From Chrysochromulina tobinii (taxonomy: Eukaryota; Haptophyta; Prymnesiales; Chrysochromulinaceae), in contig JWZX01003029.1 of the NCBI GenBank assembly GCA_001275005.1, positions 1 to 28,976 of the forward strand: 28,976 bases of DNA. The letters run 5' to 3'. The notes beneath the pieces are model-generated. The model ran no database searches. It saw only the letters and a program-made list of their open reading frames with translations, and was not told the origin of the DNA. Shown here piece by piece: positions 1,707-28,976 of this stretch (position 1 is the stretch's first letter; each line of letters starts with the position of its first letter). A program made the translations under genes and the position numbers.

Positions 1707-3416
1707 CTACTGCGAAGGAACCAGCCTTTCGAGCGGCAGTGGATCTGCAAGCGCTGCCAGCTCGTCCGCATCTAGCATCTTTAGCAGGTCTTTGCTTGCT
1801 CCTTCCCTCACTAAAATGACGCTTGAACCTCGACGCTTCTGCTTCTTGGTGCACACGCGGCTCATAGTGATCACTTTGCGAGTCATGCGCAGCAGGTCCA
1901 GCTCTGAGCGCAATATGAACTGCTTCAAGTGTTCGCCGGCCGCATGCTTGGAGTCATCGAGCAGCCACTCGCACTGCGCAAAGCCCAGGACTGAAGGGCT
2001 GGTAGGCCTGCGATCATCGGGGCTGTGTCTCATCTCATTATGTTCGGGGCTCGTCCGGCGGAGGGTTCGAGCGATTCTCTTCGCGATGCGGGACACATCT
2101 CTCTTGATGACTCTCTCGAGTCCCATGTGGCCCGGCGGCGCCTGCTCGCTCGTGACCCGATCCTCGAGCTTTCCCTGCTCGAGCTCCGATCTTCGATCCG
2201 ATCTCGCGCCCTCGAGCTCCGATCTCGCGCCCTCAAGCTCCTCCTGCTCGAGCAGCTTGCGGATCCGTCGATCACGCTGATCGATGCGCTTCATTTCCTC
2301 GAACTCCTCTGCAAAGGTTTGGCCAATGACCGTGATGGGGAGCGAGAGCGTGACGATGCCCAGCAAGATGGTGAAGATGCCTACCAGCTGGCCGATGGGC
2401 GTCTCCGGGAATAGGTCGCCGTAGCCCACTGTCGACATCGACGTCATGCAGTAGTACATGGCCTGCGGGATCGAGTAGAAGGGAGAACCGGCGCCGCTCT
2501 CGCGCAGGTAGTTGCGAACCTCCTCATTGTACTTGCCGTGCTCCAAGACGGCGATGATAGCGCCCCAAAAGAGCATGAAGATCAATACGGCAACGCACAG
2601 CAGCGAGATCGCCAAGCCCGAGCGTTGCAACGTGAGCCCGAGCACACGCATCAACTTCATCTCCTTGGAGGCCTTGAAGATGCGAAAGATGCGGGCGAGC
2701 CGAATGAGGCGCACGATGCTAAAGAACTGGCCAGCACCTCCCTCGAGAATCTGGGTGATGTACCAGGGCATAATGGCGAGCAGGTCGAGCAGGTTGAGCG
2801 GGCTGCAGAGGAATCTCCCCACCGGCATCACCATGCCGCATGTGAGGAGCCTACCTACGTACTCGCCAGTGAAGGCGAAGATGCATGCAGCCTCGATCCA
2901 CACCGAGATGCTCGTCTCCTCGATGCGCGAAGCCGAGCACTGGCGCCTTGCATCGGGCAAGATGTTGGACTCGCCATCATACCTGGGAGTCCACTTGCAG
3001 AAGTCGTCTGGGAATGAGCCAATCACGAAGTTACCGATTGAGGTGAGGATGACGGCCATCATCACGTACGAGTAGACGGATGCCAGTATCGACGAGCTCG
3101 GCTCGTTTAGGGTGATCCATATGGCGTATCGCAGCTCTTGTAAACGGCCGGCTCGTCCAACCGAGTGTGTAGAGCTTGAGGTGCCGTCATCTACCCAGCT
3201 GCTGGTGCTAGTGCTGCTGTATCCTCGTGCACATTCCGGAACAGCCGCGCCCGCTTTCGCGGCAAGTTTTCGTGAGCTGTGGCCCCGATAGGCCGCCTGC
3301 AGTTTGGCCACAATTCTGTCGAGCCTGGCGATTTCCTGGTCTATCACCGGCGGCTCATTGGCCGCCATGGGCTTGGCCTCGCTACCTTCTCTCGCTTGTT
3401 GCTCGGCTCCACTCAC
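1707..3416 (-). CDS. Voltage-gated K+ channel alpha subunit with N-terminal IQ-like motif
   Basis: This single-exon, 569-residue protein has the full 6-TM Kv layout: S1 about 108-132, S2 170-190, S3 202-223, S4 232-250, S5 268-291, pore loop 315-338 and S6 341-368. S4 carries positive residues every third position (R236, R239, R242, R245, K248). The filter reads TVGYGD at 329-334, which indicates K+ selectivity. By family knowledge it should act as a voltage-opened, tetrameric K+ channel in the plasma or an internal membrane. S6 has LPITV in place of the animal Pro-Val-Pro hinge. An IQ-like segment at about 39-54 could bind calmodulin; this is inferred. The roughly 200-residue C-tail is charged, includes a short internal duplication (LEGARS twice, near 394-406), and shows no cyclic-nucleotide-binding domain. 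The ATG at 3416 is the first in frame. Confidence 0.93.
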   Translation of the reverse strand: MSGAEQQAREGSEAKPMAANEPPVIDQEIARLDRIVAKLQAAYRGHSSRKLAAKAGAAVPECARGYSSTSTSSWVDDGTSSSTHSVGRAGRLQELRYAIWITLNEPSSSILASVYSYVMMAVILTSIGNFVIGSFPDDFCKWTPRYDGESNILPDARRQCSASRIEETSISVWIEAACIFAFTGEYVGRLLTCGMVMPVGRFLCSPLNLLDLLAIMPWYITQILEGGAGQFFSIVRLIRLARIFRIFKASKEMKLMRVLGLTLQRSGLAISLLCVAVLIFMLFWGAIIAVLEHGKYNEEVRNYLRESGAGSPFYSIPQAMYYCMTSMSTVGYGDLFPETPIGQLVGIFTILLGIVTLSLPITVIGQTFAEEFEEMKRIDQRDRRIRKLLEQEELEGARSELEGARSDRRSELEQGKLEDRVTSEQAPPGHMGLERVIKRDVSRIAKRIARTLRRTSPEHNEMRHSPDDRRPTSPSVLGFAQCEWLLDDSKHAAGEHLKQFILRSELDLLRMTRKVITMSRVCTKKQKRRGSSVILVREGASKDLLKMLDADELAALADPLPLERLVPSQ

Positions 3417-3834
3417 AACCGTCTCTTTTCAAACAACTTTGCATGCAAACGGTTATTCGTCACCAAGCAAGCAATGCTTCGTCACCAAAGACACTTCGCA
3501 GGTTCCCCTGAGCCCTGTGTCTCGACGCATTGTTCACTAATTGTTCACAAGAAAGCCCAACTGGATAGGTGGTCTAGCTTTGGTCTAGCAGCACAGAGCT
3601 GTGCGGTCAGTGAGACAGTTTCCGATGCAGGCCTCATCTTCTCATCAGTCTTGTCTCCTTGTGTCGTGAAGAGAACGTGGGAAAAGAGGAATATCGCTGT
3701 TCTTTTGATTGTTTGGGGCTCATGGAGAGGGTAGGTGAGTCCCTATCGTTGGTTTTGTGTGAAAAGTGGGTGTGAAATACCGCGCTTCACGAAGGTGGAC
3801 AGCCCCGTCGACGCGTGAGGGCCGAGTCGACGGA
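3417..3834. promoter_or_regulatory. Divergent intergenic region, K+ channel / UBL-RPB12
   Basis: These 418 bases separate two divergent start codons, so the promoters and 5' UTRs of both genes should lie here. The sequence is less GC-rich than the flanking coding DNA. I could not pick out a convincing TATA box or a repeated operator, so this call rests on gene orientation only. Confidence 0.4.
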
Positions 3835-4484
3835 ATGGAAGTCACCGTCAAGAGCATCGAGGGTAAAGCGCCACGACTTGCAGCGCCGCCACCTCTTCGC
3901 CCTGTTCCGAGTTTTCTGAGTATGCCCCGGGGTAAATCGCGCGCTCAGGTGTTGCTCTTCAGCTCGCCGTCGAGCCTACGACGCCGATCTCGAAGCTGAA
4001 GGACCTGGTCGAGCAGAGCGGCTTGGGAGTGCCCGCCGACCAGCAGCGGCTCATCTACGGTGGCAAACTGCTTGAGGATGAGCGCACCCTCGCCGACCAT
4101 TCCGTGGATCATGACGCCACGTTCCACCTGCTCGTGCGCCCACGCGGCGGCACAGCCTACCTTTGCGGCGACTGCGGGCAGACGAACGAGATCAAGCCCA
4201 AGGACCCGATCCGCTGCCGCTTCTGTGGGTACCGTATCCTCTACAAGATGCGCACCAAGAACTGTGCGCCGCGCTCCGCCTCGGTCGAACCCTGCGTTGT
4301 GGGCTCTTGCGCTCGCCGTGCGCTTTGCATGGTGCAGGGCGCTCCCAAGCTTGCCTTCCTCGCGCACGCGCTGCGCCTTTGTGTGCGCACCCGCTCCCAT
4401 CACTGGCAGGGGCCGACTGACGCATCCACCCGTGCTTGCGCGCTCTCGCTGCCGCGCGCAGTAATCCAATTCGAGGCGAGGTAG
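3835..4484 (+). CDS. RPB12: Ubiquitin-like domain fused to RNA polymerase subunit RPB12 (RPABC4), three exons
   Basis: Exons are read as 3835-3862, 3949-4263 and 4462-4484, giving 121 residues. Residues 1-77 are a full ubiquitin-like fold. The start [10 protein letters not shown] aligns with ubiquitin residues 1-10, LAVEP with its LEVEP, and [17 protein letters not shown] with its QQRLI...LEDGRTL. The domain ends VRPRGG. Residues 78-121 are a complete RPB12: zinc ligands C82, C85, C99 and C102, then [13 protein letters not shown] and the family-typical ending QFEAR. RPB12 is a shared zinc-binding subunit of RNA polymerases I, II and III. The Gly-Gly junction resembles the cleavage point in ubiquitin-ribosomal protein fusions, so the UBL may be removed by a deubiquitinase; this is inferred. 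Relative to ubiquitin, K11 and K63 are lost, while K6, K27 and the K48 equivalent remain. Both splice joins restore gap-free alignment. Confidence 0.88.
3863..3948 (+). other. Intron 1 of the UBL-RPB12 gene
   Basis: The donor is GTAAAG after GAGG and the acceptor is GCTCAG before GTGTTG, 86 nt, phase 1. Splicing gives [13 protein letters not shown], which matches ubiquitin positions 7-19 without gaps. Another AG at 3961-3962 would leave the wrong phase. Confidence 0.8.
4264..4461 (+). other. Intron 2 of the UBL-RPB12 gene (198 nt, open in frame)
   Basis: The donor GTGCGC follows AAGAACT and the acceptor CGCGCAG precedes TAATCCAATT. Joining them gives RTKNLIQFEAR then stop, the standard RPB12 ending. 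The intron length is a multiple of three and has no in-frame stop, so a retained intron would insert 66 residues before the same C-terminus rather than end the protein. Confidence 0.82.
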
Positions 4485-24706: not shown

Positions 24707-27041
24707 TCACGCAAACCACTTGCGCATGGCCCGCTCGAACCGATCCGCGTACCGGCGCGGAGGGACACATGAGTGGACGCTGGGCGTGTGGGGATGCTGC
24801 AGCGTCTTGAACCAGTTCTCCGAGGCCTTGGCGCATGTCCAGTCGGTGAGGATGTCGATAATGCCGATGAAGTAGATGGCCGGCTCGGGCACAAACCGGC
24901 CGTCGACTACTCCCGCGTCCGGCGCCATCTCGAGCAGCGCCTCCATCGCGCCGTCGTCGAAGTCCGTCCATGGCGGCCCTTGCTTGCCCGCGATCGTCTG
25001 CCCGCCTGTCCGCCTGATCTTGAACGGCGAGTCGCTCACAGGCGGTAGCACAGGCGAGGCTGGGGCCGTGGGCGAGGGGCTGCTGCCTCTGCTGCTGCTA
25101 CTCGTGTTGCCGCCGCCGCCCATCCGCAACGCGGTCGCACCCTTGCCAGTGGCGGCTGCAGCTGGCGTGAGAGACTGGTCGTAGGAATCCGGCGGCTCAC
25201 CAAAGCAGCCCTGTGATGAATCGCGCGACGCCCCACCTGACAACCCGCCTGCAGCGACGCAGGAGACCATCTCTATCCCCACCTGATCAGGAGCGATGGG
25301 CCCCGCCTTGCCGCTGCTGCCGCTGCCGCCGCCGCCGCCGCCGCCGCCGCTGCTGCCGCCGCCGCCGCCGTTGCTGCCCTTGCTGCTGCTGCTGCTGCCG
25401 CCACCGTTGCTGCCCTTGCTGCTGCTGCTGCTGCTGCTGGTCCCTTCTTCGCGGGCGGGAAAATGCACGCCGATCAGCATGGAGTAGTCCATCGTGTAGA
25501 CCGCGCGAAGGAAGTTGAGGTCGCTGCGCACCTGCAAAGGAGGGGCGGGCGCTGTGATGAGCACTTGCATGCAAAAAAGTGGAGATCGGTGCACACACCT
25601 GCGCGGTGAGAGCGTCCCTAGCGGCCGGCTTCAGCTGAAATGGTTTCAATACGTCGAGATCCTTGCGCACCATATCAGGGTGCTTTTTGAGGACCTTCTC
25701 CCCTGTGGTTCGGCCCTGTGTCGAGCCCTTAAGGTCATACCGATGGTGGATCGCGCGCGACGTGTTGAAGACGTTCGTCATCACGATGAAATGCACCTTG
25801 CGTACCCTCTTGCTGTGGCCATGCGGCAGCATGAGGCGGTGGGCGCCCATGAATCGCGGCAGTAGCGTGTGCGGCTGGCTCTCCACGTGCACCACATACT
25901 GCGGCAGGATGTGGATGAGCGAACGCAGCTCGCGATGCGGAATCGTCTTGATCAGGTACCGCCCATCATTCGAAAAGTAGAAGAAGGATCCACTCTTGCC
26001 CTCCGAGAAGAGCTCGGACAGCGATCCGATCGTGCCGAGGAGGAGCTCGCCGAGGATCTGCTCGGGCCCGAGGGAGAGCATGTAGACCGAGTCGGAGATG
26101 CCGAAGAGTTGACGAACCCGTCGGAAGGCGAGCGGCGCGTAGTCCTTGAAGTTCACCGTCGTGTCCTGTCCGCGAGAATGCCCTGGGACCTTCTTGTGCC
26201 ACACGTCGCGGTAGTGCTCGTCGCGGAGCGGGAAGCTGCTGCTGCTGCAATCGGGCGAGCTTGTGGCCGTCTTGCCAAGGGAGGCGGAGGCGGTGGCCGC
26301 AGCGGCGGCAGCGGCGGCGGCGGCGGCGGCGGCAGCGGCTTCCTCCTCCCTACTTAACTTGGCCGCGCGTCCCACCGAGAGCCTGATGGCGAGCATCATT
26401 TGGACGACGAGCTCCCAATTCTTGTGCCCAAACGAGATCGTCGTGCCGCGTCGCTCGAGTGTCGGCCTGGCCGGTGGCACGCCGTATCGCGCTCCGCCGC
26501 CCTTTACGCTCGGCTTCGAGAGCGCGGGAGCGCCGCCCAGCCCAACCTTCTTGAGCATGTCTGGGTTGTGCGTCGCGAGGTAAGCGTAGTCCTCCTTGGT
26601 CACATATCCCTTGTTATCGATGTCCATGCATCTGAAGAGCTCCCTGGCGGTGTCCTCGGCCGAGGCGGACATGTGGTCCCTGATTCCCATCTTCTCCATG
26701 GTCGCAAACAAAGAGCTGATCACGTGGTAAACCTCCGGCAAGACGAGCCTGCCGTCCTTGTTGGTGTCGTATGCGTCAAAGGCCAGCTGGATCTGCGCGT
26801 CCCGATCGGCCGGATTCAGCATGGCGGCCATCGACGCGAGGAATTCGTTGCGCTCGATCTTTCCGCTGCCGTCCTTGTCAAACGAGTTGAATAGGATCCT
26901 GACGAAGCTCTGGTCCAGGCCGAGAGTGCCAAGTCCGTTGCGGAACTCGTCAAAGTTGAGCTGCCCATCGCCGTCGGAATCCAGCTTAAAGAAGTGCTCC
27001 GTCAGATCCTTCCTCTGCTTCTCACCCTCTAGCGACGACAT
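24707..27041 (-). CDS. EF-hand phosphatidylinositol phosphate kinase, two exons
   Basis: Exons 27041-25599 and 25531-24707 join in phase 0 to give 755 residues. Four EF-hand loops lie at 21-32, 55-66, 92-103 and 140-151 (DSDGDGQLNFDE, DKDGSGKIERNE, DTNKDGRLVLPE, DIDNKGYVTKED); the first two look fully able to bind Ca2+. After a linker with a poly-Ala run comes the PIPK domain: FKDYAPLAFRRVRQLFGI, GKSGSFFYFSNDGRYLIKT (nucleotide loop and Lys), YDLKGSTQGR (catalytic Asp) and, after the intron, MDYSMLIGVH. A long Gly/Ser insert follows and then FIGIIDILTDWTCAKASENWFK. The product should be PI(4,5)P2 or a related lipid, with activity probably tuned by Ca2+. A similar Ca-sensor-PIP5K fusion is known in Plasmodium. 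The Gly/Ser insert sits within the kinase core where the family has a variable loop. Confidence 0.92.
25318..25440. repeat. Triplet repeats coding for Gly/Ser runs in the PIP kinase
   Basis: GCC/GCT-type triplets on the plus strand, read on the minus strand, give alternating poly-Gly and poly-Ser with Lys-Gly-Ser-Asn-Gly spacers. They make up the insert in the PIPK domain. The block with two KGSNGGG units is a short duplication. Confidence 0.85.
25532..25598 (-). other. Intron of the EF-hand PIP kinase gene
   Basis: On the minus strand the donor GTGTGTGC follows ACCGCGCAG, and the acceptor CCTTTGCAG precedes GTGCGCAGCG. It is 67 nt, phase 0, the same length as the GT32 intron. The join gives ALTAQ-VRSDLNFLRAVYTMDYS, as expected for PIPKs. 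Confidence 0.85.
26296..26340. repeat. GCG/GCC triplet run coding for poly-alanine in the PIP kinase
   Basis: Plus-strand GCG/GCA/GCC triplets read on the minus strand as about 15 Ala codons in a row, in the linker between the EF-hands and the kinase domain. Confidence 0.85.
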
Positions 27042-27267
27042 GGGCAGAAGTTCGCAAAAAACTAAATTCGCGTCACGAACGGTTGTCGTTGTTTATGAAA
27101 AGTCATGAAAGCCTTGAGGGCTCAGATTCGTCCGTGCGACCGAGATTGCGCGATCTCTATGTCTCGACAATCTCCGTGTTCGCAGGTTTCTCTCAAAAAG
27201 GTTCCCGTGACGCAAGGGTCGCAAGGTCCCGGGCTATCTTTTTGCGCGGGGCCAGCCGCGCGCGATC
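27042..27267. promoter_or_regulatory. Divergent promoter region, PIP kinase / Argonaute
   Basis: These 226 bases lie between the two divergent starts and should hold both promoters. The sequence includes AT-richer stretches (AAAAAACTAAATTCG near 27056 and GTTTATGAAAAGTCATG near 27089). No element could be named. Confidence 0.4.
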
Positions 27268-28976
27268 ATGGATGATCTTGTCCGGGATGCCATCTTCAAG
27301 ATCCTGAAGCCCTTGAAAGACCGAGACAACATCTCACGAAAAGAAGCTGAACGGATAGAGGACGATGTGGCCGAGTCGGTGAGCTTTGCATTCTGATCCC
27401 CCTAAAAACCAACTTGCACTGCACATATCATTAACATTCCAATGCCTCGCGCCGCGCGCAGATACTTCGCGATATGCATCACGACGGGCGCACGCACCTC
27501 AACTCCGATGATCTGAGTGCTATCCAGCGGCGTGTCACCAGAAAGGTGGACCACCTTCTCGAGGATCGCGGCTCGGGCGGCCACCAGCAGACAAATGTGC
27601 GACGCGACGAGCCGCGGCACGTCGAGCGCGATGTGCCACGGCGGGACCGCGATGAGCCACGGCGGGAGCGAGACATCCCGCAGACCACAAGCGGCCCGAC
27701 TCCGCGCTTTGCCAGTGAGCAGCAGCTCGGGGGACACAAGCGTGGGGGGAACTTTGCCGACAACGACGGGGGCGAGCGCGGGGCGCAGCGACCGCGACCG
27801 GACCCTCCGTTCACGGGGATGGCGTCGCAACCATTTGGCCAAACAGGGACCTCGTCATCCTCTGGCCCAGGGCGCGCACCGGGCTCCGGGCAGAAGGTGC
27901 GTGTGATGACCAACTTCGTGCCTCTTGGCGTGCGGCCGACCTTGGTGGTGACCCAGTACGACGTCTTCTTCGAGCCCGACGTGAAGAACGAAGAGGGACG
28001 CCAGGAGGTGATCCAGGCCCTGGGCATCATGGAGCTGCTCGGCGGCGGGCATGCGTCCGGCTGGTGCTTCGATGGCAGCAAGATCCTCTACTCTTCCACT
28101 GCGCTCGCGCTGCCGATGGGGAGCACCATGGCCACGTGGCAGGGCGGGGAAGAGAGGCTGACGGGCTTGGCCTTCGCAGGCACGAAGCGCCAGGTCACTG
28201 TGACGCTCAGCTTCGCGGCCACCCTGCAGGCAGGCGAGCGCTTCGCGAGCACGGACTTTGGACTTCGCGCAGACGACCGTAAGCACCTCGCTGTCCTCGA
28301 CGTGTGCTTCAAACATGCGGCGACGAGCGTGGGGCTCAAGGCCCTGGGCACGGCTCTCTTCGATACTCGCAGCCAGCGCGCGTGGGCCTCTATCCGGGCC
28401 ATCGGGCAAAACAAGACTTTCGAGCTGTGGAAAGGCAAACGGCAGACGATTGTGATGACAGCCAAGGGCCCGATGATGCAGCTCGACGCGGCGGCGCGAG
28501 TGATGCTTTCGGGCCTCAAACTCGACGACTTCGTGTCCAAGCTGGTGAGGAAGCAACCTGAGCAGCTCCAGATGGAGGACTTCGCCAAGCTCGATAGGAT
28601 GCTGCGCGAGAAAAAGTTCAAGGTCAAGATCAGCTCCACCCACTGCCTCTGATGACCCTTCGATGACTACTGATTGCCTCCCTCATCACAGGTCAAGATC
28701 AGCTCCACCCACTGCCTCTGATGACCCTTCGATGACTACTGATTGCCTCCCTCATCACAGGTCAAGATCAGCTCCACCCACTGCCGGCGATCCTTCATTC
28801 TACGCGGCATCGCCAGCGAGCCATGCTCCCGCTCGATGTTCCCTTGCACCGACGCCGACGGCAAGGAGACGGAGATGAGCGTGGCCGCCTACTTTGCGGC
28901 AAAGTACCCCGACCATCCGCTGAAGCGCCCCACCCAGTGGCCCTGCGTGTGCGTGGGCCCCGCCAACGACCCGCAC
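27268..28976 (+). CDS. Argonaute/PIWI-family protein, 5' part (N, linker and PAZ domains)
   Basis: Proposed exons 27268-27378, 27462-28622 and 28761 to the window edge give 496 residues so far, all joined in phase 0. Exon 1 encodes a charged helix (MDDLVRDAIFKILKPL...). A disordered Arg/Asp/Pro/Gly stretch follows, with RDEPRRERDIP-type units. The ArgoN domain begins near RVMTNFVPLGVRPTLVVTQYDVFFEP. FDGSKILYSSTALALP matches the FDGxxxLYT segment of Argonautes. The linker helix and ELWKGKRQTIV lead into PAZ: KFKVKISSTHCRRSFILRGIASEPCSRSMFPC, then MSVAAYFAAKYPDHPLKRPTQWPCVCVG, the family's YF-x-x-KY and LPCLxVG region. PAZ binds the small-RNA 3' end. MID and PIWI should follow beyond the window, so slicer residues cannot be judged. 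AGO versus PIWI clade is not decided. Confidence 0.87.
27379..27461 (+). other. Intron 1 of the Argonaute-family gene
   Basis: The donor GTGAGC follows GAGTCG and the acceptor CGCGCAG precedes ATACTTCGC, 83 nt, phase 0. The join gives DDVAES-ILRDMHHDGR. It removes the TGA just after the donor at 27391. Confidence 0.7.
28623..28760 (+). repeat. Argonaute intron made of two perfect 69-bp tandem units
   Basis: The 69-bp unit starts GTCAAGATCAGCTCC and ends CCTCATCACAG. It occurs at 28623-28691 and again at 28692-28760 without a change; the first 24 bases recur a third time as exon at 28761-28784. The donor is AAG before GTCAAG, and either copy of CATCACAG can be acceptor. Only removal of both units gives the full PAZ domain. 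The first acceptor, or retention, leads to the stop at the CTCTGA inside the unit. Confidence 0.82.

What the first reader, a model, noticed from the sequence alone, without database searches (positions are those of the whole stretch)
3835..4484. Ubiquitin-like domain fused to RNA polymerase subunit RPB12
Seen: a complete 77-residue ubiquitin-like domain ending VRPRGG runs straight into a complete RPB12 with four zinc Cys and the QFEAR end, in one three-exon gene whose splice joins restore ungapped alignment to both families. Known: ubiquitin is made as fusions to ribosomal proteins eL40 and eS31, and FUBI to eS30, and is cut off after Gly-Gly. I know of no described fusion with an RNA polymerase subunit. 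Inference: the UBL may act as a folding partner or keep RPB12 supply tied to proteolysis, or may stay attached and mark the polymerase. The Pro before Arg-Gly-Gly could slow cleavage.
Basis: partly seen in the sequence, partly recalled or inferred. Interest (0 to 1): 0.8.

Follow-up and report, generated by a model that had tools for sequence, protein, structure and literature searches.

The report
Ubiquitin-like carrier fused to polymerase subunit
In haptophyte algae a small subunit shared by the nuclear RNA polymerases is encoded as the tail of a ubiquitin or ubiquitin-like protein, the way two ribosomal proteins are made in most eukaryotes, which suggests that the ubiquitin-carrier trick was extended from the ribosome to RNA polymerase.

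Summary
Exons 3835-3862, 3949-4263 and 4462-4484 encode 121 residues: a ubiquitin-like domain (UBL) ending VRPRGG, then a complete RPB12. One exon carries most of the UBL, the junction and most of RPB12. The identical protein is deposited for the haptophyte Chrysochromulina tobinii, misnamed 'poly-histidine-tagged ubiquitin'; it is the only RPB12 match in the genome copy held. The fusion recurs in Chrysochromulina rotalis, Chrysotila carterae and many unnamed sequences; 31 of 31 proteins labelled with both domains have Gly-Gly at the junction. Six carry near-authentic ubiquitin (87-97%), fifteen a diverged UBL (43-62%). Thirteen free-standing relatives read Met-Thr-x-Tyr where fused ones read Gly-Gly-Thr-x-Tyr. 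I infer a cleavable, degenerating ubiquitin carrier for RPB12, like FUBI for eS30; cleavage is untested. The Pro before Arg-Gly-Gly sits at ubiquitin position 73, where Leu-to-Pro blocks many deubiquitinases, so slow or failed cleavage here stays open. Five aimed literature searches listed no polymerase-subunit fusion. New variant of a known kind.

The parts
3835..3862 (+). Exon 1: Met1 to first base of codon 10 of the UBL; no in-frame ATG upstream before a stop
   Evidence: identical deposited protein P0001
3863..3948 (+). Intron 1, 86 nt, GT-AG, phase 1 inside the Gly10 codon; protein letters of read-through ORFs P0009, P0013, P0022, P0025, P0026 fit an intron at the same site and phase (their DNA was not seen)
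   Evidence: a true-ubiquitin gene of the same genome (L005) has a phase 0 intron one base away
3949..4263 (+). Exon 2: UBL residues 10-77 and RPB12 up to the first base of codon 115, uninterrupted
3949..4151 (+). UBL domain, exon 2 part; predicted to fold as ubiquitin (TM by target 0.90-0.97 in the listed rows aligned over 75-77 columns)
4140..4142 (+). Pro codon at the position of ubiquitin Leu73 (P4 of the presumed cleavage site)
   Evidence: effect of L73P from papers
4146..4151 (+). Gly-Gly codons, presumed cleavage after the second Gly
   Evidence: GG in 31 of 31 dual-labelled proteins
4152..4263 (+). RPB12 (RPABC4) body, Thr78 onward, four zinc Cys
   Evidence: match to solved RPB12 chain 9mu7_L
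4264..4461 (+). Intron 2, 198 nt, GT-AG, phase 1 in the Leu115 codon, no in-frame stop
4462..4484 (+). Exon 3: rest of Leu115, IQFEAR and stop TAG (4482-4484)

Best explanation
The gene is the only RPB12 gene found in a haptophyte (Chrysochromulina tobinii). RPB12 is made as the C-terminal tail of a ubiquitin-derived carrier. Shown from sequence: one open frame, no other start codon before the zinc ribbon, Gly-Gly at the junction in every dual-labelled relative, and free-standing relatives in several of which Met takes the place of Gly-Gly. Inferred: a deubiquitinase or UBL protease cuts after Gly77, leaving a 44-residue RPB12 that starts with Thr; before the cut the UBL helps synthesis and folding of this very small zinc protein, as ubiquitin does for eL40 and eS31. 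In some relatives the carrier is still near-authentic ubiquitin, so each RPB12 would release one ubiquitin; in the window's species it has diverged and probably serves as carrier only. The Pro at position 73 probably slows the cut or restricts it to one enzyme.
For: Intact two-domain gene. Single PF03604 match in the 53.15 Mb genome copy. Met occurs only at positions 1 and 110, so no internal start can give RPB12 alone (sequence). 31 of 31 dual-labelled proteins keep GG and Thr follows in 29 of 31 (not all independent: P0002 is the window's own ORF, P0023/P0025/P0026 are near copies). Mean column entropy 1.59 bits in UBL residues 1-75, 0 at GG, 0.48 in RPB12 (31 rows); in the 24 divergent rows (7 ubiquitin-like rows left out) four UBL columns are invariant among aligned residues: G10, G48, G76, G77. 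Thirteen free-standing relatives (P0034, P0037-P0044, P0047-P0049, P0084) carry Met-Thr-(Asn/Gln/Ser)-Tyr. The same genome's only eL40 match is also fused to a strongly diverged UBL ending MVGG. Proteases are present: one UCH-type match, 40 USP-type matching stretches. Published analogues, passages read: FUBI-eS30 processing needs GG and USP36 (PMC8354635); USP36 and USP16 accept the diverged Fubi tail by a different recognition mode (PMC10611586); ubiquitin as cis-chaperone of eL40/eS31 (PMC6721733); archaeal subunit P from a strong promoter replaces yeast Rpb12 at 25 C (PMC2680338).
Against: No protein evidence of cleavage. The Pro at position 73 argues against efficient cleavage by ordinary deubiquitinases in this species; Leu73Pro ubiquitin as sole source did not support viability of yeast (PMC5706963). 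P0028 and P0029 have 30 and 10 more residues between GG and the zinc ribbon, and P0014 has Phe-Pro-Lys. Other free-standing relatives start differently (P0035 Met-Asn-Tyr, P0053 Met-His-Tyr, P0036, P0045, P0046, P0050), so Met-for-GG is not general; in P0034, P0042 and P0043 the ORF runs further upstream, and P0043 reads ...SQ-MTNY, which could be a splice acceptor before ATG, so a 5' exon cannot be excluded. Yeast lacking the first 5 or 10 residues of Rpb12 grows slightly worse in heat, so a short N-terminus has a cost there. Direction (loss or gain of the carrier) is unresolved: at least 8 changes on a poorly resolved tree of 42 columns.
Confidence: 0.7

Rival explanations
1. The UBL stays attached in this species: the L73P-like tail has made the junction resistant, and the nuclear polymerases carry a built-in UBL on RPB12.
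For: VRPRGG at the junction; L73P in ubiquitin and NEDD8 blocks many deubiquitinases, CSN and SENP8. Pro recurs in P0007, P0013 and P0018, and P0007 sits away from the other three in the weak tree, so it may have arisen more than once. Yeast Rpb12 has an N-terminal extension of its own, so that end is not tightly buried (inference).
Against: GG itself is kept in all four Pro-bearing sequences; C. rotalis, whose RPB12 is identical to the window's over the 37 core residues compared, has LRLRGG; only Thr-Ala separates GG from the Tyr before the zinc ribbon, leaving little room; uncut FUBI-eS30 harms 40S maturation and removal of ubiquitin is stated to be a general requirement for eL40/eS31 function.
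Confidence: 0.15
2. Slow cleavage is a timer: the UBL blocks incorporation of RPB12 until a dedicated protease removes it, gating polymerase assembly.
For: Non-cleavable FUBI-eS30 is hampered in incorporation and disturbs late 40S maturation; P4 is Pro in some, and the two residues before GG vary in others (LF, LC, LV, LL, LQ, QR), as if read by a specialised protease.
Against: No assembly data; free-standing relatives do without it; the variation could be plain decay.
Confidence: 0.09
3. The UBL is a new modifier that is conjugated to other proteins after release.
For: GG terminus and ubiquitin fold kept. L73P does not forbid conjugation: L73P ubiquitin was joined to FANCI:FANCD2 with similar efficiency (PMC7156235) and L73P NEDD8 to cullins (PMC5419743).
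Against: The UBL body is poorly conserved between relatives; L73P ubiquitin is poorly passed to the HECT enzyme NEDD4 (PMC10667490).
Confidence: 0.04
4. Artefact: misassembly, or a mis-predicted join of two genes.
For: None beyond the lack of mapped reads.
Against: Same architecture in 29 dual-labelled proteins beyond the window's own two forms; both domains lie in one exon.
Confidence: 0.01

Closest known systems
Ubiquitin-eL40 and ubiquitin-eS31 precursors
   Same: N-terminal ubiquitin fold ending Gly-Gly, directly followed by a small subunit of a large RNA-handling machine (zinc binding of eL40/eS31 is recalled)
   Different: Partner is an RNA polymerase subunit; in the window the ubiquitin part is only 35 of 76 identical to ubiquitin. 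Cleavage not shown
FUBI-eS30 (FAU)
   Same: Diverged UBL with retained Gly-Gly as N-terminal partner
   Different: Ribosomal partner; holozoan; cut by USP36 (PMC8354635, abstract and passages)
Diverged UBL-eS31 of Caenorhabditis (mentioned in PMC6721733, passage)
   Same: Ubiquitin carrier that decayed to a UBL while fused
   Different: Ribosomal partner
Unusual algal ubiquitin fusions: NiSOD, HMG box, P1/P2, zinc RING, membrane proteins (PMC6332867, passages)
   Same: Ubiquitin on non-canonical partners in algae, haptophytes among them for NiSOD
   Different: The words polymerase and RPB do not occur in the main text
Ubiquitin with zf-AN1, zf-RRN7, eS8, eS19, uL1, eL41 (PMC8122580, passages)
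   Same: Pfam survey of odd ubiquitin architectures; zf-RRN7 is a zinc finger of a Pol I factor (recalled)
   Different: RPB12/PF03604 not named in the passages seen; its Table S2 was not readable here

Membership tests
RPB12 / RPABC4 | PF03604 zinc ribbon above cut-off | tested here: met
   59.9 bits against 24
RPB12 / RPABC4 | Four Cys and conserved C-terminus (QFEAR) | tested here: met
RPB12 / RPABC4 | Incorporated in nuclear RNA polymerases | not testable with these tools
   inferred: only PF03604 match in the held genome copy
Ubiquitin / UBL carboxy-extension precursors | N-terminal beta-grasp ubiquitin fold | tested here: met
   (mean pLDDT 84.2 over 121 residues)
Ubiquitin / UBL carboxy-extension precursors | Gly-Gly at the end of the UBL, followed directly by the extension | tested here: met
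   window: [10 protein letters not shown] in 31 of 31 dual-labelled proteins, 28 of them with Thr and two residues more before the zinc ribbon Cys motif, the others P0014, P0028, P0029 longer
Ubiquitin / UBL carboxy-extension precursors | Extension is a ribosomal protein (classical members) | tested here: not met
   extension is RPB12
Ubiquitin / UBL carboxy-extension precursors | Post-translational cleavage after Gly-Gly | not testable with these tools
   indirect support only: GG constancy and free-standing Met-Thr relatives
Ubiquitin (as modifier) | Near-invariant ubiquitin sequence with LRLRGG tail | tested here: not met
   35 of 76 identical, VRPRGG
FUBI | Fused to eS30 | tested here: not met
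   partner is RPB12; the eS30 of this genome reads as ATG, intron, then GKVHGSL, without a UBL, by splice signals

The most novel reading that the evidence does not exclude
In Chrysochromulina tobinii and the other Pro-bearing relatives the UBL is a naturally deubiquitinase-resistant (L73P-like) tag that remains on RPB12 for a long time or for good, so that RNA polymerases I, II and III carry a permanent or timed ubiquitin-like domain; while in relatives with near-authentic ubiquitin each new RPB12 releases one ubiquitin and ties the ubiquitin pool to polymerase output.
Probability: 0.15. Interest if true: 0.85.

Novelty: new variant of a known kind. Interest (0 to 1): 0.64.

Why it matters
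Why ubiquitin is fused to eL40 and eS31 in particular is an open question: coupling of protein degradation to synthesis, or help in making small proteins. A further conserved partner outside the ribosome, again a very small four-Cys protein, with the carrier ranging from near-authentic ubiquitin to a decayed UBL and to no carrier in close relatives, is a natural experiment: it favours the folding/delivery reading over the ribosome-coupling reading and gives matched pairs to test. The L73P-like tail is a natural version of a laboratory deubiquitinase-resistant mutant.

Tried and rejected
Considered and rejected: gene-prediction join of two genes (both domains share exon 2; relatives); near-canonical ubiquitin in the window (46% identity); a NEDD8 origin (window UBL 26 of 75 identical to the NEDD8-like L011, 35 of 76 to the genome's ubiquitin); a viral source (viral-contig scan with the alignment: 14 pattern matches, none confirmed as a relative). 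Intron 2 as proof of one origin of the fusion: dropped, because P0155 (Physcomitrium) and P0157 (Pelagococcus) show a similar read-through before the last residues, so that intron may be old. Intron 1 is the better mark, but not clean: P0012, which reads through intron 2, is continuous across the intron 1 site, so it either lacks intron 1 or is a part-spliced transcript. The tree of the RPB12 part (61 rows picked by hand out of 157 proteins, 42 columns) is too poorly resolved for direction of change: 7 of 44 inner branches starred, and one outgroup row (P0086) falls inside. No eS31 was found (PF01599); a split exon or missing contigs could explain that.

Limits: G000 is 53.15 Mb in 2,253 contigs, while the published assembly is 59 Mb in 3,472 contigs (PMC4580454, passages), so a second RPB12 in the missing part is not excluded. 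Protein searches reach only relatives sharing exact words, and within a length window. Named fused haptophytes are three; the rest come from sources labelled ena, jgi, lgn or merc without organism names, so 'environmental' and 'haptophyte' are inferred for those. Two regex attempts failed and were not used (and the free-standing count); the GG count uses the 31 proteins that bear both Pfam labels, not the 35 that a GG-requiring pattern found, two of which (P0085, P0108) have GG in leaders that are not UBLs.

Papers: passages only were seen of PMC6332867, PMC5419743, PMC2680338, PMC8354635, PMC10611586, PMC8122580, PMC6721733, PMC4580454, PMC5706963, PMC12440824, PMC10667490, PMC7156235. Bekes et al. 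2013 was seen only as cited there. Nine literature searches were run; others were aimed at a polymerase-subunit fusion. I saw listings only: 20 of 79, 10 of 29, 0 of 0, 10 of 67 and 4 of 4 papers; no listed title or abstract start reports one.

Full report
WHAT IS THERE. The window (62% G+C) is contig C1870 of a 53.15 Mb eukaryote assembly. Joining 3835-3862, 3949-4263 and 4462-4484 gives a 121-residue protein: residues 1-77 are a ubiquitin-like domain ending VRPRGG and residues 78-121 are RPB12, [44 protein letters not shown]. Pfam calls both halves (PF00240 E 3.6e-19; PF03604 E 1.9e-16), and the solved-structure search matches ubiquitin chains over residues 1-78 and an RPB12 chain of RNA polymerase II over 79-121. 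The identical 121-residue protein is deposited for Chrysochromulina tobinii under the name 'poly-histidine-tagged ubiquitin' (P0001); so the source is that haptophyte and the fusion is in public databases under a misleading name. A JGI name for relative P0016 is 'large subunit ribosomal protein L40e'.

CAN THE TWO HALVES BE MADE APART? From sequence, no. Exon 2 holds UBL residues 10-77 and most of RPB12 without a break, and Met occurs only at residues 1 and 110. PF03604 has one match in the genome copy held. That copy is smaller than the published 59 Mb assembly, and a gene split inside the domain could be missed.

IS IT WIDER THAN ONE ALGA? Yes. Three protein searches returned 157 proteins in all (count); 31 carry both Pfam labels (30, plus P0057), one of which (P0002) is the window's own intron-retaining ORF. 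Named ones are C. tobinii and C. rotalis (Prymnesiales; for C. rotalis) and Chrysotila carterae (placed in Isochrysidales); P0004 bears an MMETSP name, a transcriptome project (recalled), so the fusion is transcribed in C. rotalis. Read-through ORFs P0009, P0013, P0022, P0025 and P0026 enter the UBL at Gly10 with a preceding residue that fits xCA-G, that is the same phase 1 intron as in the window (protein letters only), while a true-ubiquitin gene of the same genome has a phase 0 intron one base away and another has one after residue 12. That favours one origin for these fusions; P0012, continuous across the site though it reads through intron 2, speaks against a shared intron 1 in every fusion.

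WHAT IS CONSERVED. In the 31 dual-labelled proteins the junction keeps Gly-Gly in 31, and the next residue is Thr in 29 (Phe in P0014, Ser in P0029). The four residues before GG vary: LRLR 16, LRPR 3, LRLF 3, VRPR 2, LRLC 2, LRLL 2, LRQR, LKLQ, LRLV 1 each. Among 31 aligned rows (A1) mean entropy is 1.59 bits for UBL residues 1-75, zero for GG, 0.48 for RPB12; in the 24 divergent rows (7 ubiquitin-like rows left out) the only invariant UBL columns are G10 (14 rows with a letter), G48, G76 and G77 (24 rows each). A1 and the 31 dual-labelled proteins are not the same list: A1 lacks P0002 and P0057 and holds P0020 and P0031. If four of 76 positions are invariant, two named positions are both among them by chance about 0.2% of the time (my arithmetic); G10 and G48 (ubiquitin G47) are probably kept for the fold. 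Of the 21 sequences with at least 69 residues aligned to ubiquitin (out of 35 rows), six are 87-97% identical to human ubiquitin and fifteen 43-62%; the window's is 46%. So the partner ranges from near-authentic ubiquitin to a decayed UBL while the cut site stays.

THE FREE-STANDING RELATIVES. Thirteen proteins (P0034, P0037-P0044, P0047-P0049, P0084) have RPB12 without a UBL and read Met-Thr-(Asn, Gln or Ser)-Tyr-Leu-Cys-Gly, and fused P0010, P0019 and P0020 read Gly-Gly-Thr-Asn-Tyr-Leu-Cys-Gly. In P0034, P0042 and P0043 that Met is not the first of the ORF. Methionine before threonine is normally removed (recalled), so the mature proteins would be the same as the product of cutting after Gly-Gly. 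P0035, P0036, P0045, P0046, P0050 and P0053 have other starts. Intron 2 sits at the same place in fused and free forms, but similar read-through in a moss and a pelagophyte suggests that it is older than the fusion. On a weakly resolved tree of the RPB12 part (61 rows, 42 columns) the fused/free state changes at least 8 times; direction cannot be told.

THE SAME THING IN A SISTER GENE. The only eL40 match in the genome is also preceded by a strongly diverged UBL, ending ...RMVGG-VIEPSL (25 of 76 identical to the genome's ubiquitin). So this alga has let two ubiquitin carriers decay while keeping Gly-Gly in both. That is what one expects if the carrier's job is to be attached and then removed, and not to supply ubiquitin, which a polyubiquitin gene (L002/L003) can do.

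MECHANISM. Most likely: synthesis as a fusion, folding help in cis, cleavage after Gly77 by a UCH or USP enzyme, incorporation of the 44-residue RPB12. Steps shown: architecture, conservation of the cut site, free-standing equivalents, presence of UCH (one match) and USP (40 matching stretches) genes. Steps inferred: cleavage, chaperone effect, identity of the protease. Precedents seen in passages: ubiquitin assists synthesis of eL40 and eS31 in yeast and SUMO partly replaces it (PMC6721733); FUBI-eS30 needs intact Gly-Gly and USP36, and uncut forms harm 40S maturation (PMC8354635); USP36 reads the Fubi tail in a mode of its own (PMC10611586), so altered tails can be cut; archaeal subunit P from a strong promoter supports yeast without Rpb12 at 25 C with slower growth at 37 C (PMC2680338), so a short RPB12 can work, at some cost in heat.

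THE PROLINE. Residue 74 aligns with ubiquitin Leu73. L73P makes ubiquitin resistant to a wide range of deubiquitinases and NEDD8 resistant to CSN and SENP8 (PMC5419743; also PMC12440824), fails as sole ubiquitin source in yeast (PMC5706963) and is poorly passed to the HECT ligase NEDD4 (PMC10667490), though it is conjugated normally in another system (PMC7156235). Pro is present in P0001/P0002, P0007, P0013 and P0018; P0007 groups with other sequences than the rest in the weak tree, so it may have arisen twice. I read this as a brake or a change of protease, since GG is kept in all of them and the congener C. rotalis has LRLRGG; a retained UBL remains possible (0.15).

STRUCTURE. AlphaFold2 with 24 sequences gives mean pLDDT 84.2 (86-94 per ten-residue block over residues 1-70, 75 for 71-80, under 50 for residues 115-121) and pTM 0.60; the UBL superposes on ubiquitin chains at 0.8-1.9 A rmsd in the listed rows aligned over 75-77 columns. 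Foldseek's best rows by E-value are linear di-ubiquitins, aligned over about 100 columns at high rmsd, so they say little about the RPB12 half; no RPB12 chain is among the 50 rows shown.

NOVELTY. The five aimed literature searches (listings only; see Tried and rejected) gave no ubiquitin or UBL fusion to an RNA polymerase subunit. The algal survey PMC6332867 does not contain the words polymerase or RPB in its main text; the review PMC8122580 names zf-AN1, zf-RRN7, eS8, eS19, uL1 and eL41 as odd partners, but its Table S2 could not be read. It works like the ubiquitin-ribosomal-protein and FUBI-eS30 precursors, if it is cut; it is not one of them by partner. Hence: new variant of a known kind.

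Noticed in passing
L032 (contig C1717:27922-28281, minus strand): The only eL40 match in the genome is fused to a strongly diverged UBL ending MVGG-VIEPSL, so the eL40 carrier has decayed too.
   Followed up: partly
L005 (contig C1268:4222-4422 and on): True ubiquitin runs into an eL41-like tail (GHKSNPWKKAHSK-MGWKWKKKRTRRLQRKRR, then, by splice signals, KMRQRSK); the eL41 likeness is recalled, and a ubiquitin-eL41 fusion is mentioned in PMC8122580.
   Followed up: partly
L008 and L020 (contigs C1835, C1991): Two loci encode ubiquitin running into a thioredoxin-like stretch (RLRGGVQMLTSKAEFD...WCGPC; likeness recalled); L020 is cut by the contig start.
   Followed up: no
L033 (contig C288:11776-11949): eS30 appears to be free-standing (ATG, intron, GKVHGSLARAG), without FUBI or ubiquitin; no PF01599 (eS31) match was found in the genome copy.
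   Followed up: partly
window 4264-4461: Intron 2 is 198 nt and open in frame; its retention would insert 66 residues into RPB12. The ORF cluster with it (P0002) counts 14 member sequences on 17 contigs.
   Followed up: partly
window 1710-3428 (-): ORF of 573 aa with an ion channel domain (PF00520).
   Followed up: no
window 25290-27092 (-): EF-hand pairs and a phosphatidylinositol phosphate kinase domain (PF13499 with PF01504) in one ORF.
   Followed up: no
window 27435-28649 (+): ORF with an Argonaute N-terminal domain (PF16486) near the contig end.
   Followed up: no
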